From NCBI GenBank assembly GCA_015059285.1, contig SVAS01000001.1, positions 132,217 through 196,216 on the forward strand: 64,000 nt of DNA. Direction: 5' to 3'. Under the pieces are notes generated by a model. The model was given only the letters and a program-made list of their open reading frames with translations, searched no databases and had not been told where the DNA came from. This DNA is from Bacillota bacterium. GTDB lineage: Bacteria > Bacillota_I > Bacilli_A > RF39 > UBA660. This document shows positions 38,882 through 53,538 of this stretch, one piece after another (within the stretch, counting starts at the first letter, position 1; every line of letters begins with the position of its first letter). The position numbers were made by a program, and so were the translations under genes.

Positions 38882-38956
38882 TGGAGCAAGTGATGGGAAT
38901 CGAACCCACGTCTCAGCCTTGGCAAGGCCGCGTACTAGCCGTTGTACTACACCTGC
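38882..38956 (-). tRNA. tRNA-Gly(GCC)
   Basis: GCAGGTGTAGTACAACGGCTAGTACGCGGCCTTGCCAAGGCTGAGACGTGGGTTCGATTCCCATCACTTGCTCCA. Confidence 0.95.
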
Positions 38957-46744: not shown

Positions 46745-46912
46745 AACAAAGAGATTTATAAATAAATCTTTTTTTTTGGATTTTACTTCCCTAAATTAGT
46801 CAAAAAGTGATATAATTGTTTTAGAAAAAATGGTAAAATTTTCCATTTTTGAGAAATATCATTTCCTTATTAATATTTCTTATCAATTTTACTTATGTTA
46901 AGGAGTGATGAA

Positions 46913-48190
46913 ATGCCAAAAATATATAACGGTAAAGATGTTTACACTGCTGCAATGGAAAGATTTGAATATATTTTTAATAATTTTGATAACTACTATT
47001 TTTCCGTAAGTGGTGGTAAAGATAGTAGCGTAATGCTACAATTAGCTGCAAAAAAAGCACGTGAAATGAATAAAAAAATAAGCGTTTTATATGTTGACTT
47101 AGAAGCTCAATATAAAGCAACTATAGACCATATTTATGAACTTATTGATGAAGTTAAAGATGTTTTAGATAATTGGTATTGGATCGCTATGCCATTAGCT
47201 TTGAGAAATGCTGTTTCTATTATTCAACCTAAATGGATTTGTTGGAATACAAAAGAAAAACGTAAATGGGTAAGAGACTTACCAAAAAACGAATGGGTTA
47301 TTAATGAAAAAAACTATCCTAAAGAGTGGGATTGGTTTTATAAAGGTATGGAATTTGAAGAATTTATTTTGTATTTTGCTGATTGGTTTAATAAAAAAAA
47401 TGGTGGAACTACTGCTTGTTGTATTGGCATTAGAACCGCAGAAAGTTTAAATCGTTTTCGCACAATTACGAATAAAAAGAAAGAAAAATTTCAAAATAAA
47501 AGTTGGACAACTAGATTTCATATAAAAAATCATGCCATTAATGTTTACAACGTTTTTCCTTTGTATGATTGGAAAGCAGAAGATGATTGGACCGCTGTAT
47601 TTAAGTTTGATTTAAAATATAACGATATTTATGAACAAATGTATAAAAATGGTTTATCTATTTATGAACAACGCCTATGCCAACCTTATGGTGATGATCA
47701 AAAAAATGGTCTTAATCAATTTAAAGCATTAGAATATGATACTTGGGAAAAAGTTTTAAATAGAGTTCATGGTGTTAATTTTGGTAACATATATTGTAGA
47801 ACTAGTGTGTTAGGGTATATGAAAACAGAAAAACCAGATAATATGACATGGCAACAATATACAGTTTTTTTACTTGAAAGTTTAGGTCTTTATGTTCCAG
47901 AACTGAGAGATCATTATTATGTTAAGATAAAAGGTTTCTTCAGATGGTATGAAAAAAAAGCCGGAATATTACCAAATGAAATAAAAGATGAAGAAGACAA
48001 AAGGTTAGAAAACTTAAGAAGAGTGGCAAGTTGGAGAAGAATTGCTAGAGCTCTTGAAAGAAATGACTTTTGGATGAAACGCTTAAGTTACTGTCAAAGT
48101 AAAAAAGATGCTAAAAAACTAGTTGAACTTCAGAAAAAATATAAAAATCTAATTGATAAAAATGATAGCCACTTTCAAGGGATAGAGTAA
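46913..48190 (+). CDS. PAPS-reductase/DUF3440 family, IbrA-like
   Basis: YYFSVSGGKDSSVMLQLAAKKA (PP-loop), YVDLEAQYKATIDHI, TACCIGIRTAESLNRFRTI; ATG 46913 after AAGGAGTGATGAA. Confidence 0.85.
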   Translation: MPKIYNGKDVYTAAMERFEYIFNNFDNYYFSVSGGKDSSVMLQLAAKKAREMNKKISVLYVDLEAQYKATIDHIYELIDEVKDVLDNWYWIAMPLALRNAVSIIQPKWICWNTKEKRKWVRDLPKNEWVINEKNYPKEWDWFYKGMEFEEFILYFADWFNKKNGGTTACCIGIRTAESLNRFRTITNKKKEKFQNKSWTTRFHIKNHAINVYNVFPLYDWKAEDDWTAVFKFDLKYNDIYEQMYKNGLSIYEQRLCQPYGDDQKNGLNQFKALEYDTWEKVLNRVHGVNFGNIYCRTSVLGYMKTEKPDNMTWQQYTVFLLESLGLYVPELRDHYYVKIKGFFRWYEKKAGILPNEIKDEEDKRLENLRRVASWRRIARALERNDFWMKRLSYCQSKKDAKKLVELQKKYKNLIDKNDSHFQGIE

Positions 48191-48201
48191 GGAGTAGTTT
48201 T

Positions 48202-48642
48202 ATGAATGCTGTAAAGAAATATGAAGTAAAAGAAAAATATAATATTAAAGTCTATATGGGAAAATATGATAAAAAAGAATTTTACGGACAAATGGGGGAA
48301 TTCTTTGCTGATCGTAATTATAGAAAACAATTACCATATTTAATCAATGATGTAGATAAAATTTGGTATTTAGTTTATGATAAAAATAAATTTATTGGTT
48401 TTTTTGGAGTTAAAATTTGTACTGAAAACACTTTGATTTCGGATATTTATTTTGAAGACGCTCCAAATAAAATAAACGCTTTTAAATATACAGCTGAATT
48501 TTTAGTTGACTTATATCAAGAAGAAGAATTAAAAGTACTAACAAAAATAAAAGAAGAACAAAACATTTGGTTAAAATTAGGTTTTGTCAAAGCAGGAACT
48601 AGAGGAAATTATTTAATATTAATTAAAGAAGGTAAAAAATGA
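48202..48642 (+). CDS. GNAT-like acetyltransferase
   Basis: Between IbrA- and IbrB-like genes; KIWYLVYDKNKFIGFFGVKI...WLKLGFVKAGTRGNYLILIK. Confidence 0.6.
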   Translation: MNAVKKYEVKEKYNIKVYMGKYDKKEFYGQMGEFFADRNYRKQLPYLINDVDKIWYLVYDKNKFIGFFGVKICTENTLISDIYFEDAPNKINAFKYTAEFLVDLYQEEELKVLTKIKEEQNIWLKLGFVKAGTRGNYLILIKEGKK

Positions 48643-49184
48643 AACCAATAACTTTTCCTGTCTTAGATGTAAAAATGGTGCCAATTAAGAAAGTTCTTGC
48701 TAATGATTACAACCCCAATAAAGTAGCTTATCCTGAAATGCAACTATTAAGATATTCAATTGAACAAGATGGGTACACTCAACCAATAGTTACATACTAT
48801 GATAAGAAAAATGATGCTTATATTATAGTAGATGGTTTTCATAGATATAGATGTGCTAAGGAGTATTTTCATTTAGACGAAATACCCGTAGTAGTAATAA
48901 GTAAAGATATTAAACATCGTATGGCTTCCACAATTCGTCATAATCGTGCCCGTGGAACTCATCAAATAAAAGATATGAGTGTAATCGTAAAAGATTTAAC
49001 AGAATTCGGTTGGAGTGATCAAAAAATATGTAGCGAATTAGGTATGGAATTAGATGAAGTTATTAGACTAAAACAAATAACAGGACTAAAAGAAGCTTTT
49101 CAAAATCATGAGTTTAGTAAATCTTGGGATGAATTTGAAAAAAAATATTATCCTGATGAAGTTTCTGAAGAAGTCAATTCATAA
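48639..49184 (+). CDS. ParB/sulfiredoxin-fold protein, IbrB-like
   Basis: VPIKKVLANDYNPNKVAYPEMQLLRYSIEQDGYTQPIVTYYD...IVDGFHRYRCAKEY. Confidence 0.87.
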   Translation: MKPITFPVLDVKMVPIKKVLANDYNPNKVAYPEMQLLRYSIEQDGYTQPIVTYYDKKNDAYIIVDGFHRYRCAKEYFHLDEIPVVVISKDIKHRMASTIRHNRARGTHQIKDMSVIVKDLTEFGWSDQKICSELGMELDEVIRLKQITGLKEAFQNHEFSKSWDEFEKKYYPDEVSEEVNS

Positions 49185-49317
49185 AAGAATTAGTATTTAA
49201 ATTATGGTAAAAAAAAGCTAAAAAACAAATGTTTTTTAGTTTTTTTTGTATAAAATCATAAAAATAAAAAGGATTTTGTTAACTTCTTAGCGAATATTAA
49301 TAATAGGAGGTAATAAA

Positions 49318-50082
49318 ATGCATGAATTAACAGGAAAAGACAATGAATTTGAATTTGTTAAATATTTTAATGGTAAAAAAATTTCAGAATTGAATCCAAA
49401 ATTCAGAGAATTGGTAGATAAACTATATCCATTTGAAAACGAAAACTCAATAATCAAAAGTTGGCGTAATCATTATCCACAAAAAACTGATATATTTATC
49501 AGGATTAATGGTGTAATGAAAGGAATTAGTATAAAAAAAGGAATGAAAAATTCAGTTCATGTGGACAGAATAACAGATTTTATTCATTTTTTGATTGATA
49601 ATAAAGTTGATGAAGATATTGTAATTGAATATTTAAAGTATCACTATGCTGATGGAAGTATAAATGGAACTGGCAAAAAGAGATTATCTTGTGAAGAATA
49701 TAAAACAAATAATCAGTTAGGAATTGATAGTATTAACAAAGCTTTTAATGATGAGAAAATATTACGTAAAGCAATTGAGAAATTTGTTATAAAAGGAAAC
49801 AATTCAGATTTTTATATTGATGCAATGATTTATGGAACTATTGACGATTTTTTATGGATAACTAAAAAGGAAGTAATAAATATCATTTTGTCAAAGCGAA
49901 ATGTTTATTCAACTGCAGTTCATTTTGGTCCTTTAGTTTGTCAACCTAAAAATAGATGTTTAAACTTTAATTCTAAATATGAAAAAGACCGATTTTGTGT
50001 ACAGTTGAAATGGTATAGTTTGTTTGATGATATTATTGAATATATGAATATTAAGGAAATGAATAAGAGAGCTCAATGGTAG
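49318..50082 (+). CDS. Putative PD-(D/E)XK-like nuclease/restriction protein
   Basis: PQKTDIFIRINGVMKGISIKKGMKNSVHVDRI (D-x11/12-I-x-I-K pattern). Confidence 0.45.
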   Translation: MHELTGKDNEFEFVKYFNGKKISELNPKFRELVDKLYPFENENSIIKSWRNHYPQKTDIFIRINGVMKGISIKKGMKNSVHVDRITDFIHFLIDNKVDEDIVIEYLKYHYADGSINGTGKKRLSCEEYKTNNQLGIDSINKAFNDEKILRKAIEKFVIKGNNSDFYIDAMIYGTIDDFLWITKKEVINIILSKRNVYSTAVHFGPLVCQPKNRCLNFNSKYEKDRFCVQLKWYSLFDDIIEYMNIKEMNKRAQW

Positions 50083-50185
50083 AACTCTCTTTATTTGTTT
50101 TTAATAACTGACAGGTTAAGAAAGTGGGTCCGAAAAAGTACAAAAAAAATGAACTAACTAAATAGTTCATTTAAACTATCAAATT

Positions 50186-50259
50186 GGAGCGGGTGATGGG
50201 AATCGGACCCACGTTCTTAGCTTGGAAGGCTAGAGTTCTACCATTGAACTACACCCGCA
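50186..50259 (-). tRNA. tRNA-Gly(UCC)
   Basis: GCGGGTGTAGTTCAATGGTAGAACTCTAGCCTTCCAAGCTAAGAACGTGGGTCCGATTCCCATCACCCGCTCCA. Confidence 0.95.
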
Positions 50260-50314: not shown

Positions 50315-50968
50315 TTAAAATTTTTCTTCTTTCATAATCCACTTGATATCTTCTATGGCTTTATCAATATTAAATCTCCCATTTCCAACAGGATAGTATA
50401 CAGCATACATTTTATAAGTTTTATCATTAATAGTTTTTGAATAACATTTTTTTCTAACTAATGAGACTGATATTTTTTCTTGTAGAACAATTGAACTAAC
50501 TTGGTTTCCAAACAAAATAATCACCTTAGGTTTAATTATTTCAAACTCTTTATATAATAGATGTAAATATTTTTCATATGTAGAATTAGGTAATTCTCTA
50601 GCATCTATCTGTGTACACTTTCCCAAGTTAGTTATAAAGTACTTATGTTTTTTTACATTTTCGTACACTTGTTCAGCAAAATTTTCAGACCAATCTGAGC
50701 CTTTTAAATTTTTAATTTCAGTATATAACTTTTTATCTAATAATTTTAGTGAATAAAATAAGTCCCAAATATTTTTTGTGCCAATCCAAGGAGACTTTAG
50801 TCCCTTCCAATTTTTATTTGCGGCAATATTTCTTTTTGTAGGATTCATAAATACAAAACAAATATTTGGATTTGTCTCACATCCCCCATTGTATATAGAA
50901 TCTAAATTAATATCGCCATATGTTTTTTGTAGAATATCATATTCTTTATTTAATTCTTTTAGTGTCAT
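50315..50968 (-). CDS. Uracil-DNA glycosylase superfamily-like protein
   Basis: NICFVFMNPTKRNIAA, KYFITNLGKC, KPKVIILFGNQVSSIV, YYPVGNGRFN. Confidence 0.7.
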   Translation of the reverse strand: MTLKELNKEYDILQKTYGDINLDSIYNGGCETNPNICFVFMNPTKRNIAANKNWKGLKSPWIGTKNIWDLFYSLKLLDKKLYTEIKNLKGSDWSENFAEQVYENVKKHKYFITNLGKCTQIDARELPNSTYEKYLHLLYKEFEIIKPKVIILFGNQVSSIVLQEKISVSLVRKKCYSKTINDKTYKMYAVYYPVGNGRFNIDKAIEDIKWIMKEEKF

Positions 50969-51386: not shown

Positions 51387-51803
51387 ATGGATCCTAATTT
51401 AAAAAGAAGTATTATACTAGAACATTATCAAAATCCTAAAAATAAAGGATTAATTGATGATGAAAATTACATAAAAATAAATATGAACAATGAAAGTTGT
51501 ATAGATGAAATTGATTTAATGGTAAAAATTAAAGATAGTATTATTGAAGATATTAGATTTGATGGTGAGGCTTGTGCTATATGCACTAGCTCAACTTCAA
51601 TAATGATTAATACATTAATTGGTAAAACAATTGACGAAGTGCAAGAGATTTATACTAATTTTGAAAATATGGTTAATGAAAATGAATATAAGAGTGAATT
51701 ATTAGAAGAAGCAAATGTATATGATGATATATATAAACAGCCAAATAGAAAAAAATGTGCTTTACTTCCTTGGTGGGGTATAAATAAAATTATAAATAAA
51801 TAG
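51387..51803 (+). CDS. sufU: Fe-S scaffold SufU/NifU-like
   Basis: ILEHYQNPKNKG, DGEACAICTSSTSIM, KKCALLPWWGI. Confidence 0.88.
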   Translation: MDPNLKRSIILEHYQNPKNKGLIDDENYIKINMNNESCIDEIDLMVKIKDSIIEDIRFDGEACAICTSSTSIMINTLIGKTIDEVQEIYTNFENMVNENEYKSELLEEANVYDDIYKQPNRKKCALLPWWGINKIINK

Positions 51804-51815
51804 TAGGTGAATAAT

Positions 51816-52172
51816 ATGAATATTTATAAAGTTTCAACTTGTAAATTCACAGAAGCAGAAGACTGTTCATATATAACTCGTTTGGCTGTAGATAAATATG
51901 TGGATCACTTTTGTACTTTTGATTGTGAAACAAACATAGCTACAGATTTATTTAGTCAAGAACAGTTTTATGTGTTAAAAAAATCTTCAAACAATCGCAT
52001 TTTACAATCAGAAGTAGCAAAAATTAATTTTGTCGATAGCTTTGGAGTGAGGATAGAAAAATTAAAATTGAAATCATTATCGCGAAGTGAACAAATACAA
52101 CTAGGTTTAGCTTATTATAAATATCAAATACTAAGTAAAACGAAAGGTAAACAAAAAGTAATAAAAAGATAG
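51816..52172 (+). CDS. Hypothetical Cys-containing protein between sufU and sufB
   Basis: ATG 51816 after GTAGGTGAATAAT. Confidence 0.55.
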   Translation: MNIYKVSTCKFTEAEDCSYITRLAVDKYVDHFCTFDCETNIATDLFSQEQFYVLKKSSNNRILQSEVAKINFVDSFGVRIEKLKLKSLSRSEQIQLGLAYYKYQILSKTKGKQKVIKR

Positions 52173-52224
52173 ATTTTACTATCTTTTCTTTTGTTTTTAA
52201 TATATAATGTATATGGTGATATTT

Positions 52225-53538
52225 ATGAAAAGTACAAATGCATTAACTAGTGAAACGATAAAAAAAATATCAGCTTTAAAACAAGAACCAAACTGGATGT
52301 TAGAGTTTCGATTAAAATCATTAGATAAATTTAATAAACTTTCTAATCCAACATTTGGTCCAGAAATAAAGATAGACTTTTCTGATATCAATTATTATAA
52401 AAAAGTAATAGAAGAAATAAAAAATGATTGGAATGAATTACCAAATAATATTAAAAGCACATTTGATGAAATCGGGTTGCCACAAGCTGAAAAAAAGTAC
52501 TTAGCAGGGGTTCATGCACAATGTGAAAGTGAAACAGTATACCATAATATGCTTCAAGAAATAAAAGAAAAAAATATAATCTTTTGTGATACTGATACAG
52601 CATTAAAAAAATATCCTGATTTATTTAAACAATATTTTAACAATTTAGTCAAATATGATGAGAATAAATATACAGCATTAAATGGAGCGGTATGGAGTGG
52701 AGGAACGTTTATATATATTCCACCTAATACAACTTTAGATCGCCCTTTACAAAGTTATTTTAGAATTAATACTAAAAATATGGGGCAATTTGAGCGAACT
52801 ATTATTATTGTTGATGAAGGAAGTGACCTACATTATATGGAAGGTTGTACAGCACCAACTTATACTAGTGACGCACTTCATGCGGCTGTTGTAGAAATAT
52901 ATGTGAAGAAAAATGCGAAATGCAGGTACACAACAATTCAGAACTGGTCTAGTGATGTATATAATTTAGTTACCAAAAGGGCAATAGTTGATGAAAATGG
53001 GCTAATGGAATGGATTGATGGCAATATTGGTTCTAAAGTAAACATGAAATATCCAAGTTGTATTTTGAATGGCAAAAATGCTAAAGGAAATTGTATTTCT
53101 ATTGCTATTGCAAATAAAAGTCAATTTCAAGATACCGGTGCAAAAATGATTCACTTGGCTCCTAATACCCAAAGTAGTATTATTAGTAAGTCCATAGCTT
53201 TAAAGGGTGGAACTTCTAATTATAGAGGTACAGTGAAAATATCAAAAAAAGCAAATAATTCGTCAGCAAATGTAAAATGTGATACAATCATTATTGATAA
53301 ACATTCAAAAAGCGATACTATTCCTAAAAATATAGTTGATAATAAAACATCATATATTGAACATGAGGCAACTGTTTCAAAAATAGATGAAGAAAAATTG
53401 TTTTATCTAATGAGTAGAGGGTTATCAGAAGATAAAGCAAGAGAATTATTGATGATGGGATTTATTGAACGTTTTCGCGAAGAATTACCTATGGAATATG
53501 CAGTAGAATTAAATGCTCTACTAAAAAATTATTTTTAA
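52225..53538 (+). CDS. sufB: Fe-S assembly protein SufB
   Basis: ISALKQEPNWMLEFRLKSL, AVWSGGTFIYIPPNT, YMEGCTAPTYTSDALHAAVVEI, MGFIERFREELPMEYAVELNALL. Confidence 0.92.
   Translation: MKSTNALTSETIKKISALKQEPNWMLEFRLKSLDKFNKLSNPTFGPEIKIDFSDINYYKKVIEEIKNDWNELPNNIKSTFDEIGLPQAEKKYLAGVHAQCESETVYHNMLQEIKEKNIIFCDTDTALKKYPDLFKQYFNNLVKYDENKYTALNGAVWSGGTFIYIPPNTTLDRPLQSYFRINTKNMGQFERTIIIVDEGSDLHYMEGCTAPTYTSDALHAAVVEIYVKKNAKCRYTTIQNWSSDVYNLVTKRAIVDENGLMEWIDGNIGSKVNMKYPSCILNGKNAKGNCISIAIANKSQFQDTGAKMIHLAPNTQSSIISKSIALKGGTSNYRGTVKISKKANNSSANVKCDTIIIDKHSKSDTIPKNIVDNKTSYIEHEATVSKIDEEKLFYLMSRGLSEDKARELLMMGFIERFREELPMEYAVELNALLKNYF

What the first reader, a model, noticed from the sequence alone, without database searches (positions are those of the whole stretch)
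46800..50082. IbrA-like / GNAT / IbrB-like / PD-(D/E)XK-like cluster: possible unreported DNA-modification or defence unit
Seen: PP-loop PAPS-reductase-like protein, GNAT-like protein and ParB/Srx-fold protein in one overlapping operon, then a protein with KTDIFIRINGVMKGISIKKGMKNSVH, reminiscent of restriction nucleases. Known: IbrA/IbrB pairs are mostly mobile-element borne with poorly defined biochemistry; PAPS-reductase relatives (DndC) perform DNA phosphorothioation. Inference: the cluster may modify nucleic acid or protein, with the nuclease-like gene as effector. The PD-(D/E)XK call is weak, and that gene is separated by a 133-bp gap containing a terminator-like hairpin.
Basis: partly seen in the sequence, partly recalled or inferred. 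Interest (0 to 1): 0.6.

Follow-up and report, generated by a model that had tools for sequence, protein, structure and literature searches.

The report
IbrA-GNAT-IbrB operon beside tRNA-linked nuclease
What looked like one four-gene defence cluster is two neighbouring units: a recurrent three-gene IbrA/acetyltransferase/IbrB cassette of unknown chemistry, and an unrelated restriction-enzyme-like nuclease whose solitary relatives repeatedly sit just behind tRNA genes next to an upside-down, partly decayed copy of the same tRNA.

Summary
The four genes are real and correctly placed. The grouping is not: they form two units. Unit A (46913-49184) is IbrA (DUF3440/PAPS-reductase-like), a GNAT-fold protein and IbrB (ParB_N plus HTH). 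The GNAT belongs to a subfamily tied to IbrA: 26 of 29 cellular IbrAs at >=45% identity have it within two genes. It also occurs in phages and once fused in frame to IbrA. The unit is under purifying selection; its chemistry is unknown. IbrA has no invariant cysteine, which argues against DndC-type thiolation. Gene 4 (49318-50082) is genuinely PD-(D/E)XK-like (AlphaFold model matches HinP1I, E 1.3e-8) and related to the N-terminal half of R.AciI, but it is not part of unit A. It follows a terminator hairpin, is absent beside the syntenic operon in the same genus, and was found at no other ibr locus. It has no cognate C5-methyltransferase or second half in this genome. Of 48 solitary relatives, 33 lie within 223 bp of a tRNA gene, 32 on its 3' side. 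In 25 of those 33 an inverted partial copy of the same tRNA lies between, as here (50070-50133). I infer a tRNA-gene-associated selfish nuclease derived from a restriction subunit. Defence by the four-gene set is not supported.

The parts
46913..48190 (+). ibrA: PP-loop (SGGKDS) PAPS-reductase-like protein with DUF3440 region, 425 aa
   Evidence: 70-87% identical in same genus/family; dN/dS 0.075 vs G001
48202..48642 (+). GNAT-fold protein of an IbrA-linked subfamily; acyl-CoA loop motif degenerate in this copy
   Evidence: fold; linkage; dN/dS 0.28 vs G001
48639..49184 (+). ibrB: ParB_N/Srx-fold domain with conserved DGFHR motif, followed by a region read here as ParB-type HTH
   Evidence: HTH reading from sequence
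49210..49247 (+). Rho-independent-terminator-like hairpin (17-bp stem, U-tract) separating unit A from gene 4
   Evidence: z -4.25
49318..50082 (+). Separate unit: solitary HinP1I-fold nuclease related to the N-terminal half (R1) of R.AciI
50070..50133 (+). Decayed partial copy of tRNA-Gly(TCC), inverted relative to the intact gene; overlaps the last codons and TAG stop of the nuclease gene
   Evidence: score 44; no shuffle reaches it
50185..50258 (-). Intact tRNA-Gly(TCC), tail-to-tail with the nuclease gene

Best explanation
Two independent units abut. Unit A (ibrA-GNAT-ibrB) is a chromosomal copy of an IbrA/IbrB cassette also found in phages, with a dedicated GNAT as third component. Shown: operon layout, linkage of the GNAT to IbrA, folds, purifying selection. 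Inferred: IbrB binds DNA through its HTH and uses its ParB/Srx domain as a nucleotide-dependent switch; IbrA adenylates a target with its PP-loop; since IbrA has no invariant cysteine, the attacking group is more likely nitrogen than sulphur (as in TilS); the GNAT tailors or senses the product. So unit A most likely modifies a nucleic acid or nucleotide, or uses that chemistry to control transcription (about 0.35). Unit B is a solitary nuclease derived from one subunit of an AciI-type (Type IIT) restriction enzyme. Shown: HinP1I-like fold, no cognate C5-methyltransferase or second half, residence on the 3' side of particular tRNA genes, and an inverted partial copy of that tRNA in between. Inferred: it is a selfish, site-specific nuclease that cuts or nicks a tRNA gene and spreads by repair of the break, in the manner of a free-standing homing endonuclease (about 0.45).
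For: Two units: G001 (same genus) is syntenic from the ABC gene through ibrB (79% DNA identity) but lacks gene 4; gene 4 homologues were found at no ibr locus except the window's own; terminator between. Unit A: GNAT within two genes of 26/29 cellular IbrAs at >=45% identity; in 36 family genomes searched for both, IbrA and the GNAT subfamily occur in the same four; in-frame IbrA-GNAT fusion in L147; GNAT upstream of IbrA in Bacteroides and others; SNF2-type helicase directly upstream of IbrA in 21/88 cellular and 21/80 viral loci. Unit B: second half absent from 12 solitary genomes; no C5-MTase above cut-off in G000; 33 of 48 solitary loci within 223 bp of a tRNA gene, 32 of 33 on its 3' side, nine isoacceptors; nuclease clades follow the tRNA type; inverted partial copy significant in 25/33, direct copy 0/33, control tRNAs 2/20; the resident tRNA is the best match in 20/25 Gly and Met loci; sporadic, 55 of 291 family genomes, with fragments and in-frame stops in several.
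Against: Unit A: no chemistry shown. The GNAT is absent from most distant IbrA loci (cellular <45% identity: 8/63 have it; viral <55%: 0/62) and its CoA loop is degenerate here, so it may not be an enzyme. IbrA/IbrB are annotated as co-activators of prophage gene expression, which would fit a purely regulatory role. Unit B: 10 of 48 solitary loci have no tRNA nearby and 5 are cut off by contig ends; the inverted copy could be a by-product of local rearrangement; no cleavage site is known (CCGC in 17/33 adjacent tRNAs against 3/22 background is weak); the Met-tRNA clade shares far-side neighbours in all pairs, so part of the pattern is inheritance.
Confidence: 0.6

Rival explanations
1. All four genes form one modification-plus-restriction defence unit, gene 4 being the effector that cuts unmodified DNA.
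For: Same strand and adjacency; gene 4 is a real restriction-type nuclease.
Against: Gene 4 absent from G001, G004, G016 and G030, which have the operon, and found at no other ibr locus; terminator between; relatives follow tRNA genes; neighbours mostly housekeeping.
Confidence: 0.04
2. Unit A is purely regulatory: IbrB is a DNA-binding activator, IbrA and the GNAT act on IbrB or on small molecules, and no nucleic acid is modified.
For: IbrA/IbrB are annotated as co-activators of prophage gene expression; ybdNM is an E. coli relative under a LysR regulator (PMC9068703); HTH region conserved.
Against: PP-loop and other polar residues of IbrA are fully conserved, suggesting an enzyme; helicase association suggests action on nucleic acid.
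Confidence: 0.35
3. IbrA thiolates DNA like DndC, with a host cysteine desulphurase as sulphur donor.
For: Same PP-loop superfamily as DndC (established knowledge; family hits); SUF genes nearby (51387-53538).
Against: No cysteine conserved above 79% in 168 IbrAs, whereas DndC has a distinct cysteine dyad (PMC10853773); no dnd partners in the cluster; the suf genes look like housekeeping and stay in place in G001.
Confidence: 0.1
4. Gene 4 is only a decaying leftover of a lost AciI-type restriction-modification system that happened to survive near tRNA genes.
For: Related to R.AciI half; complete split system exists in G023; some copies are fragments or carry stops.
Against: Most copies intact with invariant active-site residues; dN/dS 0.16-0.41 (dS high); chance residue cannot explain 32/33 on tRNA 3' sides, clade-specific tRNA choice and inverted tRNA copies.
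Confidence: 0.25
5. Gene 4 is cargo of small islands that integrate at tRNA 3' ends through a recombinase.
For: tRNA 3' ends are classic integration sites; 32/33 copies lie there.
Against: No direct duplication of the tRNA end: longest exact match on the far side 10 nt, direct copy 0/33; the copies are inverted; no integrase seen next to gene 4 in the window.
Confidence: 0.15

Closest known systems
IbrA/IbrB pairs (E. coli YbdN/YbdM; Listeria lmo1310/lmo1309; many phages)
   Same: DUF3440 PP-loop protein followed by a ParB-type protein; 30-42% identity of IbrA to phage IbrAs
   Different: A GNAT subfamily gene sits between them; absent from the Streptococcus, Lactobacillus and E. coli phage pairs examined
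DndBC (DNA phosphorothioation) and DpdB/DpdE (deazaguanine DNA modification)
   Same: ParB-superfamily protein with a PAPS-reductase-like enzyme (Dnd) or an SNF2 helicase (Dpd, as in phage ibr loci)
   Different: No conserved cysteine in IbrA, no other Dnd or Dpd genes in the cluster
R.AciI (Type IIT restriction enzyme, single chain with two catalytic domains; PMC4081073)
   Same: Gene 4 aligns with its N-terminal half (27% identity over 96% of gene 4)
   Different: Second half and both methyltransferases missing; lies beside a tRNA gene
HinP1I restriction endonuclease
   Same: Fold over nearly the whole chain (TM about 0.6)
   Different: 17% identity; S-x-K where HinP1I has Q-x-K (recalled); no methyltransferase
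Free-standing homing endonucleases, and the PD-(D/E)XK intron enzyme I-Ssp6803I
   Same: Solitary nuclease, sporadic, tied to a specific site in or near tRNA genes, with degenerating copies
   Different: No intron seen; HinP1I-like fold; an inverted tRNA copy accompanies it; cleavage not shown

Membership tests
IbrA/IbrB family | DUF3440 + PAPS-reductase PP-loop protein | tested here: met
   S33, G35, K36, D37, S38 of the PP-loop motif in 100% of 168 relatives; DUF3440 score lower than in most classical IbrAs (97.8 against 268-298 bits)
IbrA/IbrB family | Adjacent ParB-type IbrB | tested here: met
IbrA/IbrB family | Activation of prophage or eib-type genes | not testable with these tools
   needs expression experiments
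DndC / DNA phosphorothioation | Conserved cysteine dyad for sulphur transfer | tested here: not met
   no Cys column above 79% in 168 IbrAs
DndC / DNA phosphorothioation | dndD/dndE partners next to it | tested here: not met
GNAT superfamily | GNAT fold | tested here: met
   profile hits in relatives
GNAT superfamily | (R/Q)xxGx(G/A) acyl-CoA loop | tested here: not met
   absent in the window copy and most relatives; canonical in L044; near-canonical RxxG in a few (read; strict scan)
HinP1I-type PD-(D/E)XK nuclease | Fold and active-site D...xK | tested here: met
   K56, D58, S71, K73 invariant, E10 nearly. Activity not tested
AciI-type (Type IIT) restriction-modification system | Second catalytic half | tested here: not met
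   absent from G000 and 11 other solitary genomes; present in G023 only
AciI-type (Type IIT) restriction-modification system | Cognate C5-cytosine methyltransferases | tested here: not met
   PF00145: no match above cut-off in G000
Homing endonuclease (function) | Residence at a specific, conserved genomic site | tested here: met
   (33 of 48 solitary copies)
Homing endonuclease (function) | Cleavage of the empty site | not testable with these tools
   needs purified protein

The most novel reading that the evidence does not exclude
Gene 4 represents an undescribed class of selfish element: solitary HinP1I-fold nucleases recruited from AciI-type restriction enzymes, each lineage specific to one tRNA gene, inserting on its 3' side and leaving an inverted partial copy of that tRNA as a footprint.
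Probability: 0.4. Interest if true: 0.75.

Novelty: new variant of a known kind. Interest (0 to 1): 0.58.

Why it matters
For unit A, a third component tied to IbrA, plus alternative small genes in the same position (GNAT, an ectoine-synthase-like cupin, or an unrelated small protein), gives a concrete handle on a widespread phage-borne pair whose biochemistry is unknown. For unit B, restriction-enzyme subunits turned into tRNA-gene-linked selfish nucleases would connect restriction-modification systems with homing elements, explain why such orphan nucleases survive without a methyltransferase, and can be tested directly by cutting assays on the named tRNA genes.

Tried and rejected
Four genes as one defence unit: rejected on co-occurrence and synteny. 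PADLOC on genes 1-2: no hit. Gene 4 or GNAT in viral contigs by peptide patterns: none. Sequence-profile search of gene 4 against PDB: nothing meaningful; only the fold comparison worked. An apparent IbrA-GNAT fusion in L123 was a wrong reading frame in GC-rich DNA and is discarded. att-type tRNA duplication: not found. CCGC/GCGG (AciI site) as the insertion target: only weak enrichment. Small slot proteins of Microcystis and Pseudomonas phages as GNATs: rejected, no similarity. Mom-like DNA acylation for the GNAT was considered but not tested against Mom itself.

Full report
WHAT IS THERE. The window lies on contig C3 of a 1.04-Mb genome. Four plus-strand ORFs are present as described. Gene 1 is IbrA-like, gene 3 IbrB-like. 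Gene 2 gives no direct family hit, but its orthologues in the same family reach Pfam GNAT models, and its AlphaFold model from 28 relatives (pLDDT 91.9) matches GNAT structures. Gene 4 hits a PADLOC type II restriction-enzyme profile over its whole length. Genes 1 and 2 are separated by 11 bp, genes 2 and 3 overlap by 4 bp, and a strong terminator-like hairpin (49210-49247) separates gene 3 from gene 4.

UNIT A IS REAL. The order ibrA-GNAT-ibrB is kept in four further genomes of the genus and family. In a survey of 80 genome loci and 80 viral loci plus those fetched earlier, 26 of 29 cellular IbrAs at 45% identity or more to this one have the GNAT within two genes, against 8 of 63 below 45%; among viral loci 6 of 16 at 55% or more, and 0 of 62 below. 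One viral contig carries an in-frame IbrA-GNAT fusion (L147). In Bacteroides and some others the GNAT lies upstream of IbrA instead. In 36 family genomes searched for both, IbrA and this GNAT subfamily occur in exactly the same four; the next-best GNAT scores 43 bits against 129 or more. All three genes are under purifying selection between this genome and its congener (dN/dS 0.075, 0.28, 0.097; flanking genes 0.063 and 0.084), the GNAT with a ratio about three times higher.

WHAT UNIT A MIGHT DO. In 168 IbrA sequences the PP-loop and several polar residues are essentially invariant, but no cysteine column exceeds 79%. DndC depends on a cysteine dyad (PMC10853773), so sulphur transfer of that type is unlikely. 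PP-loop enzymes without such cysteines (TilS, for example; established knowledge) use nitrogen nucleophiles. An SNF2-type helicase gene lies directly upstream of IbrA in 21 of 88 cellular and 21 of 80 viral loci. Three unrelated small genes occupy the slot between ibrA and ibrB in different lineages: the GNAT, an ectoine-synthase-like cupin (Pseudoalteromonas phage XCL1123 and a planctomycete; fused to IbrB in Mycobacterium phages), and an uncharacterised small protein in ibrB-X-ibrA order. I infer an adenylating enzyme plus exchangeable tailoring or sensing parts acting on nucleic acid or on a regulator. The acyl-CoA loop of this GNAT is degenerate, so its catalysis is doubtful. IbrA/IbrB are otherwise annotated as co-activators of prophage gene expression, and E. 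coli ybdNM is under a LysR regulator (PMC9068703).

GENE 4 IS A RESTRICTION-TYPE NUCLEASE BUT SEPARATE. tblastn finds the N-terminal half of R.AciI on plasmid pAciIRM, a Staphylococcus plasmid protein beside two C5-methyltransferases, and one subunit of a split system in a Terrisporobacter phage. R.AciI is a Type IIT enzyme with two catalytic domains in one chain (PMC4081073). The AlphaFold model (pLDDT 91.2) matches HinP1I over nearly the whole chain (E 1.3e-8). K56, D58, S71 and K73 are invariant and E10 nearly so in 12 sequences. The genome has no C5-methyltransferase above cut-off and no second half; its one other restriction-type pair elsewhere looks unrelated. G001, the same-genus genome, is syntenic through ibrB but lacks gene 4, and gene 4 homologues were found at no ibr locus except the window's own.

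GENE 4 FOLLOWS tRNA GENES. Profile searches found it in 55 of 291 family genomes and 27 of 395 class genomes. Of 48 solitary loci examined with about 1.5 kb of flank, 33 lie within 223 bp of a tRNA gene (median 80 bp), 5 are cut by contig ends, 10 have none near. In 32 of 33 the nuclease is on the tRNA's 3' side, in either orientation; nine isoacceptors occur, Gly(TCC) 13 and Gly(GCC) 7 being commonest. Loci with complete AciI-type systems are not near tRNAs. This genome yields only 22 tRNA genes, so chance proximity should be a few per cent (my estimate). The nuclease tree groups by tRNA type: Gly(GCC) is one clade with full support, and all labels need 20 changes against 31.3 in shuffles, none of 200 as low. 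Gly(TCC) loci hardly share other neighbours (1 of 78 pairs on the far side), whereas Met loci do (10 of 10), so both movement and inheritance may be involved.

THE INVERTED tRNA COPY. Between the tRNA 3' end and the nuclease lies a decayed partial copy of the same tRNA in inverted orientation: significant (at most 1 of 200 shuffles) in 25 of 33 loci, against 0 of 33 for direct copies and 2 of 20 for control tRNAs (a few of the 20 are counted twice). The resident tRNA is the best match in 20 of 25 Gly and Met loci. In the window it spans 50070-50133 and overlaps the end of gene 4, so that its last codons and TAG stop lie in tRNA-like sequence. The tRNA-Gly(TCC) of G001, which has no nuclease, has no such copy. 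The shuffles keep only base composition; the contrast between inverted and direct copies is the stronger control. I infer a selfish nuclease that targets a tRNA gene; cleavage has not been shown, and recombinase-driven integration or inherited residue are not excluded.

VERDICT. Two units lie side by side: a variant of the known IbrA/IbrB kind, and a solitary restriction-derived nuclease with an unexpected tie to tRNA genes, which is the more surprising result.

Noticed in passing
window 50315-50968 (-): Uracil-DNA-glycosylase-superfamily protein (Pfam UDG 2.7e-7; UDG family 4 3.8e-10) next to the tRNA-Gly.
   Followed up: no
L052 4332-4724; L138 7320-7688; L053 4302-5201: Ectoine-synthase-like cupin in the slot between ibrA and ibrB (Pseudoalteromonas phage, planctomycete) and fused to IbrB (Mycobacterium phages); in at least 4 of 5 phage records found it lies beside IbrA (the fifth is unannotated).
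   Followed up: partly
L057, L058, L129, L172-L215: In many viral loci the order is ibrB-X-ibrA with an uncharacterised X of about 125-170 aa; in L193 an X-like domain is fused to IbrB.
   Followed up: partly
L139 1428-3945 and similar loci: SNF2-type helicase (about 460-490 aa) and a second gene of about 380-410 aa directly upstream of IbrA in many phage loci.
   Followed up: partly
L028 5295-9003 (G023): Complete split AciI-type system: two nuclease subunits and two C5-methyltransferases.
   Followed up: partly
window 38882-38956 (-): tRNA-Gly(GCC) without a nuclease also shows a weak inverted partial copy downstream (score 27, 0 of 200 shuffles); possibly an old footprint.
   Followed up: no
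G000:C3 about 256800-257500 (L219): N4/N6-type DNA methyltransferase next to a small protein that looks like a restriction enzyme, a probable type II pair elsewhere in the genome.
   Followed up: partly
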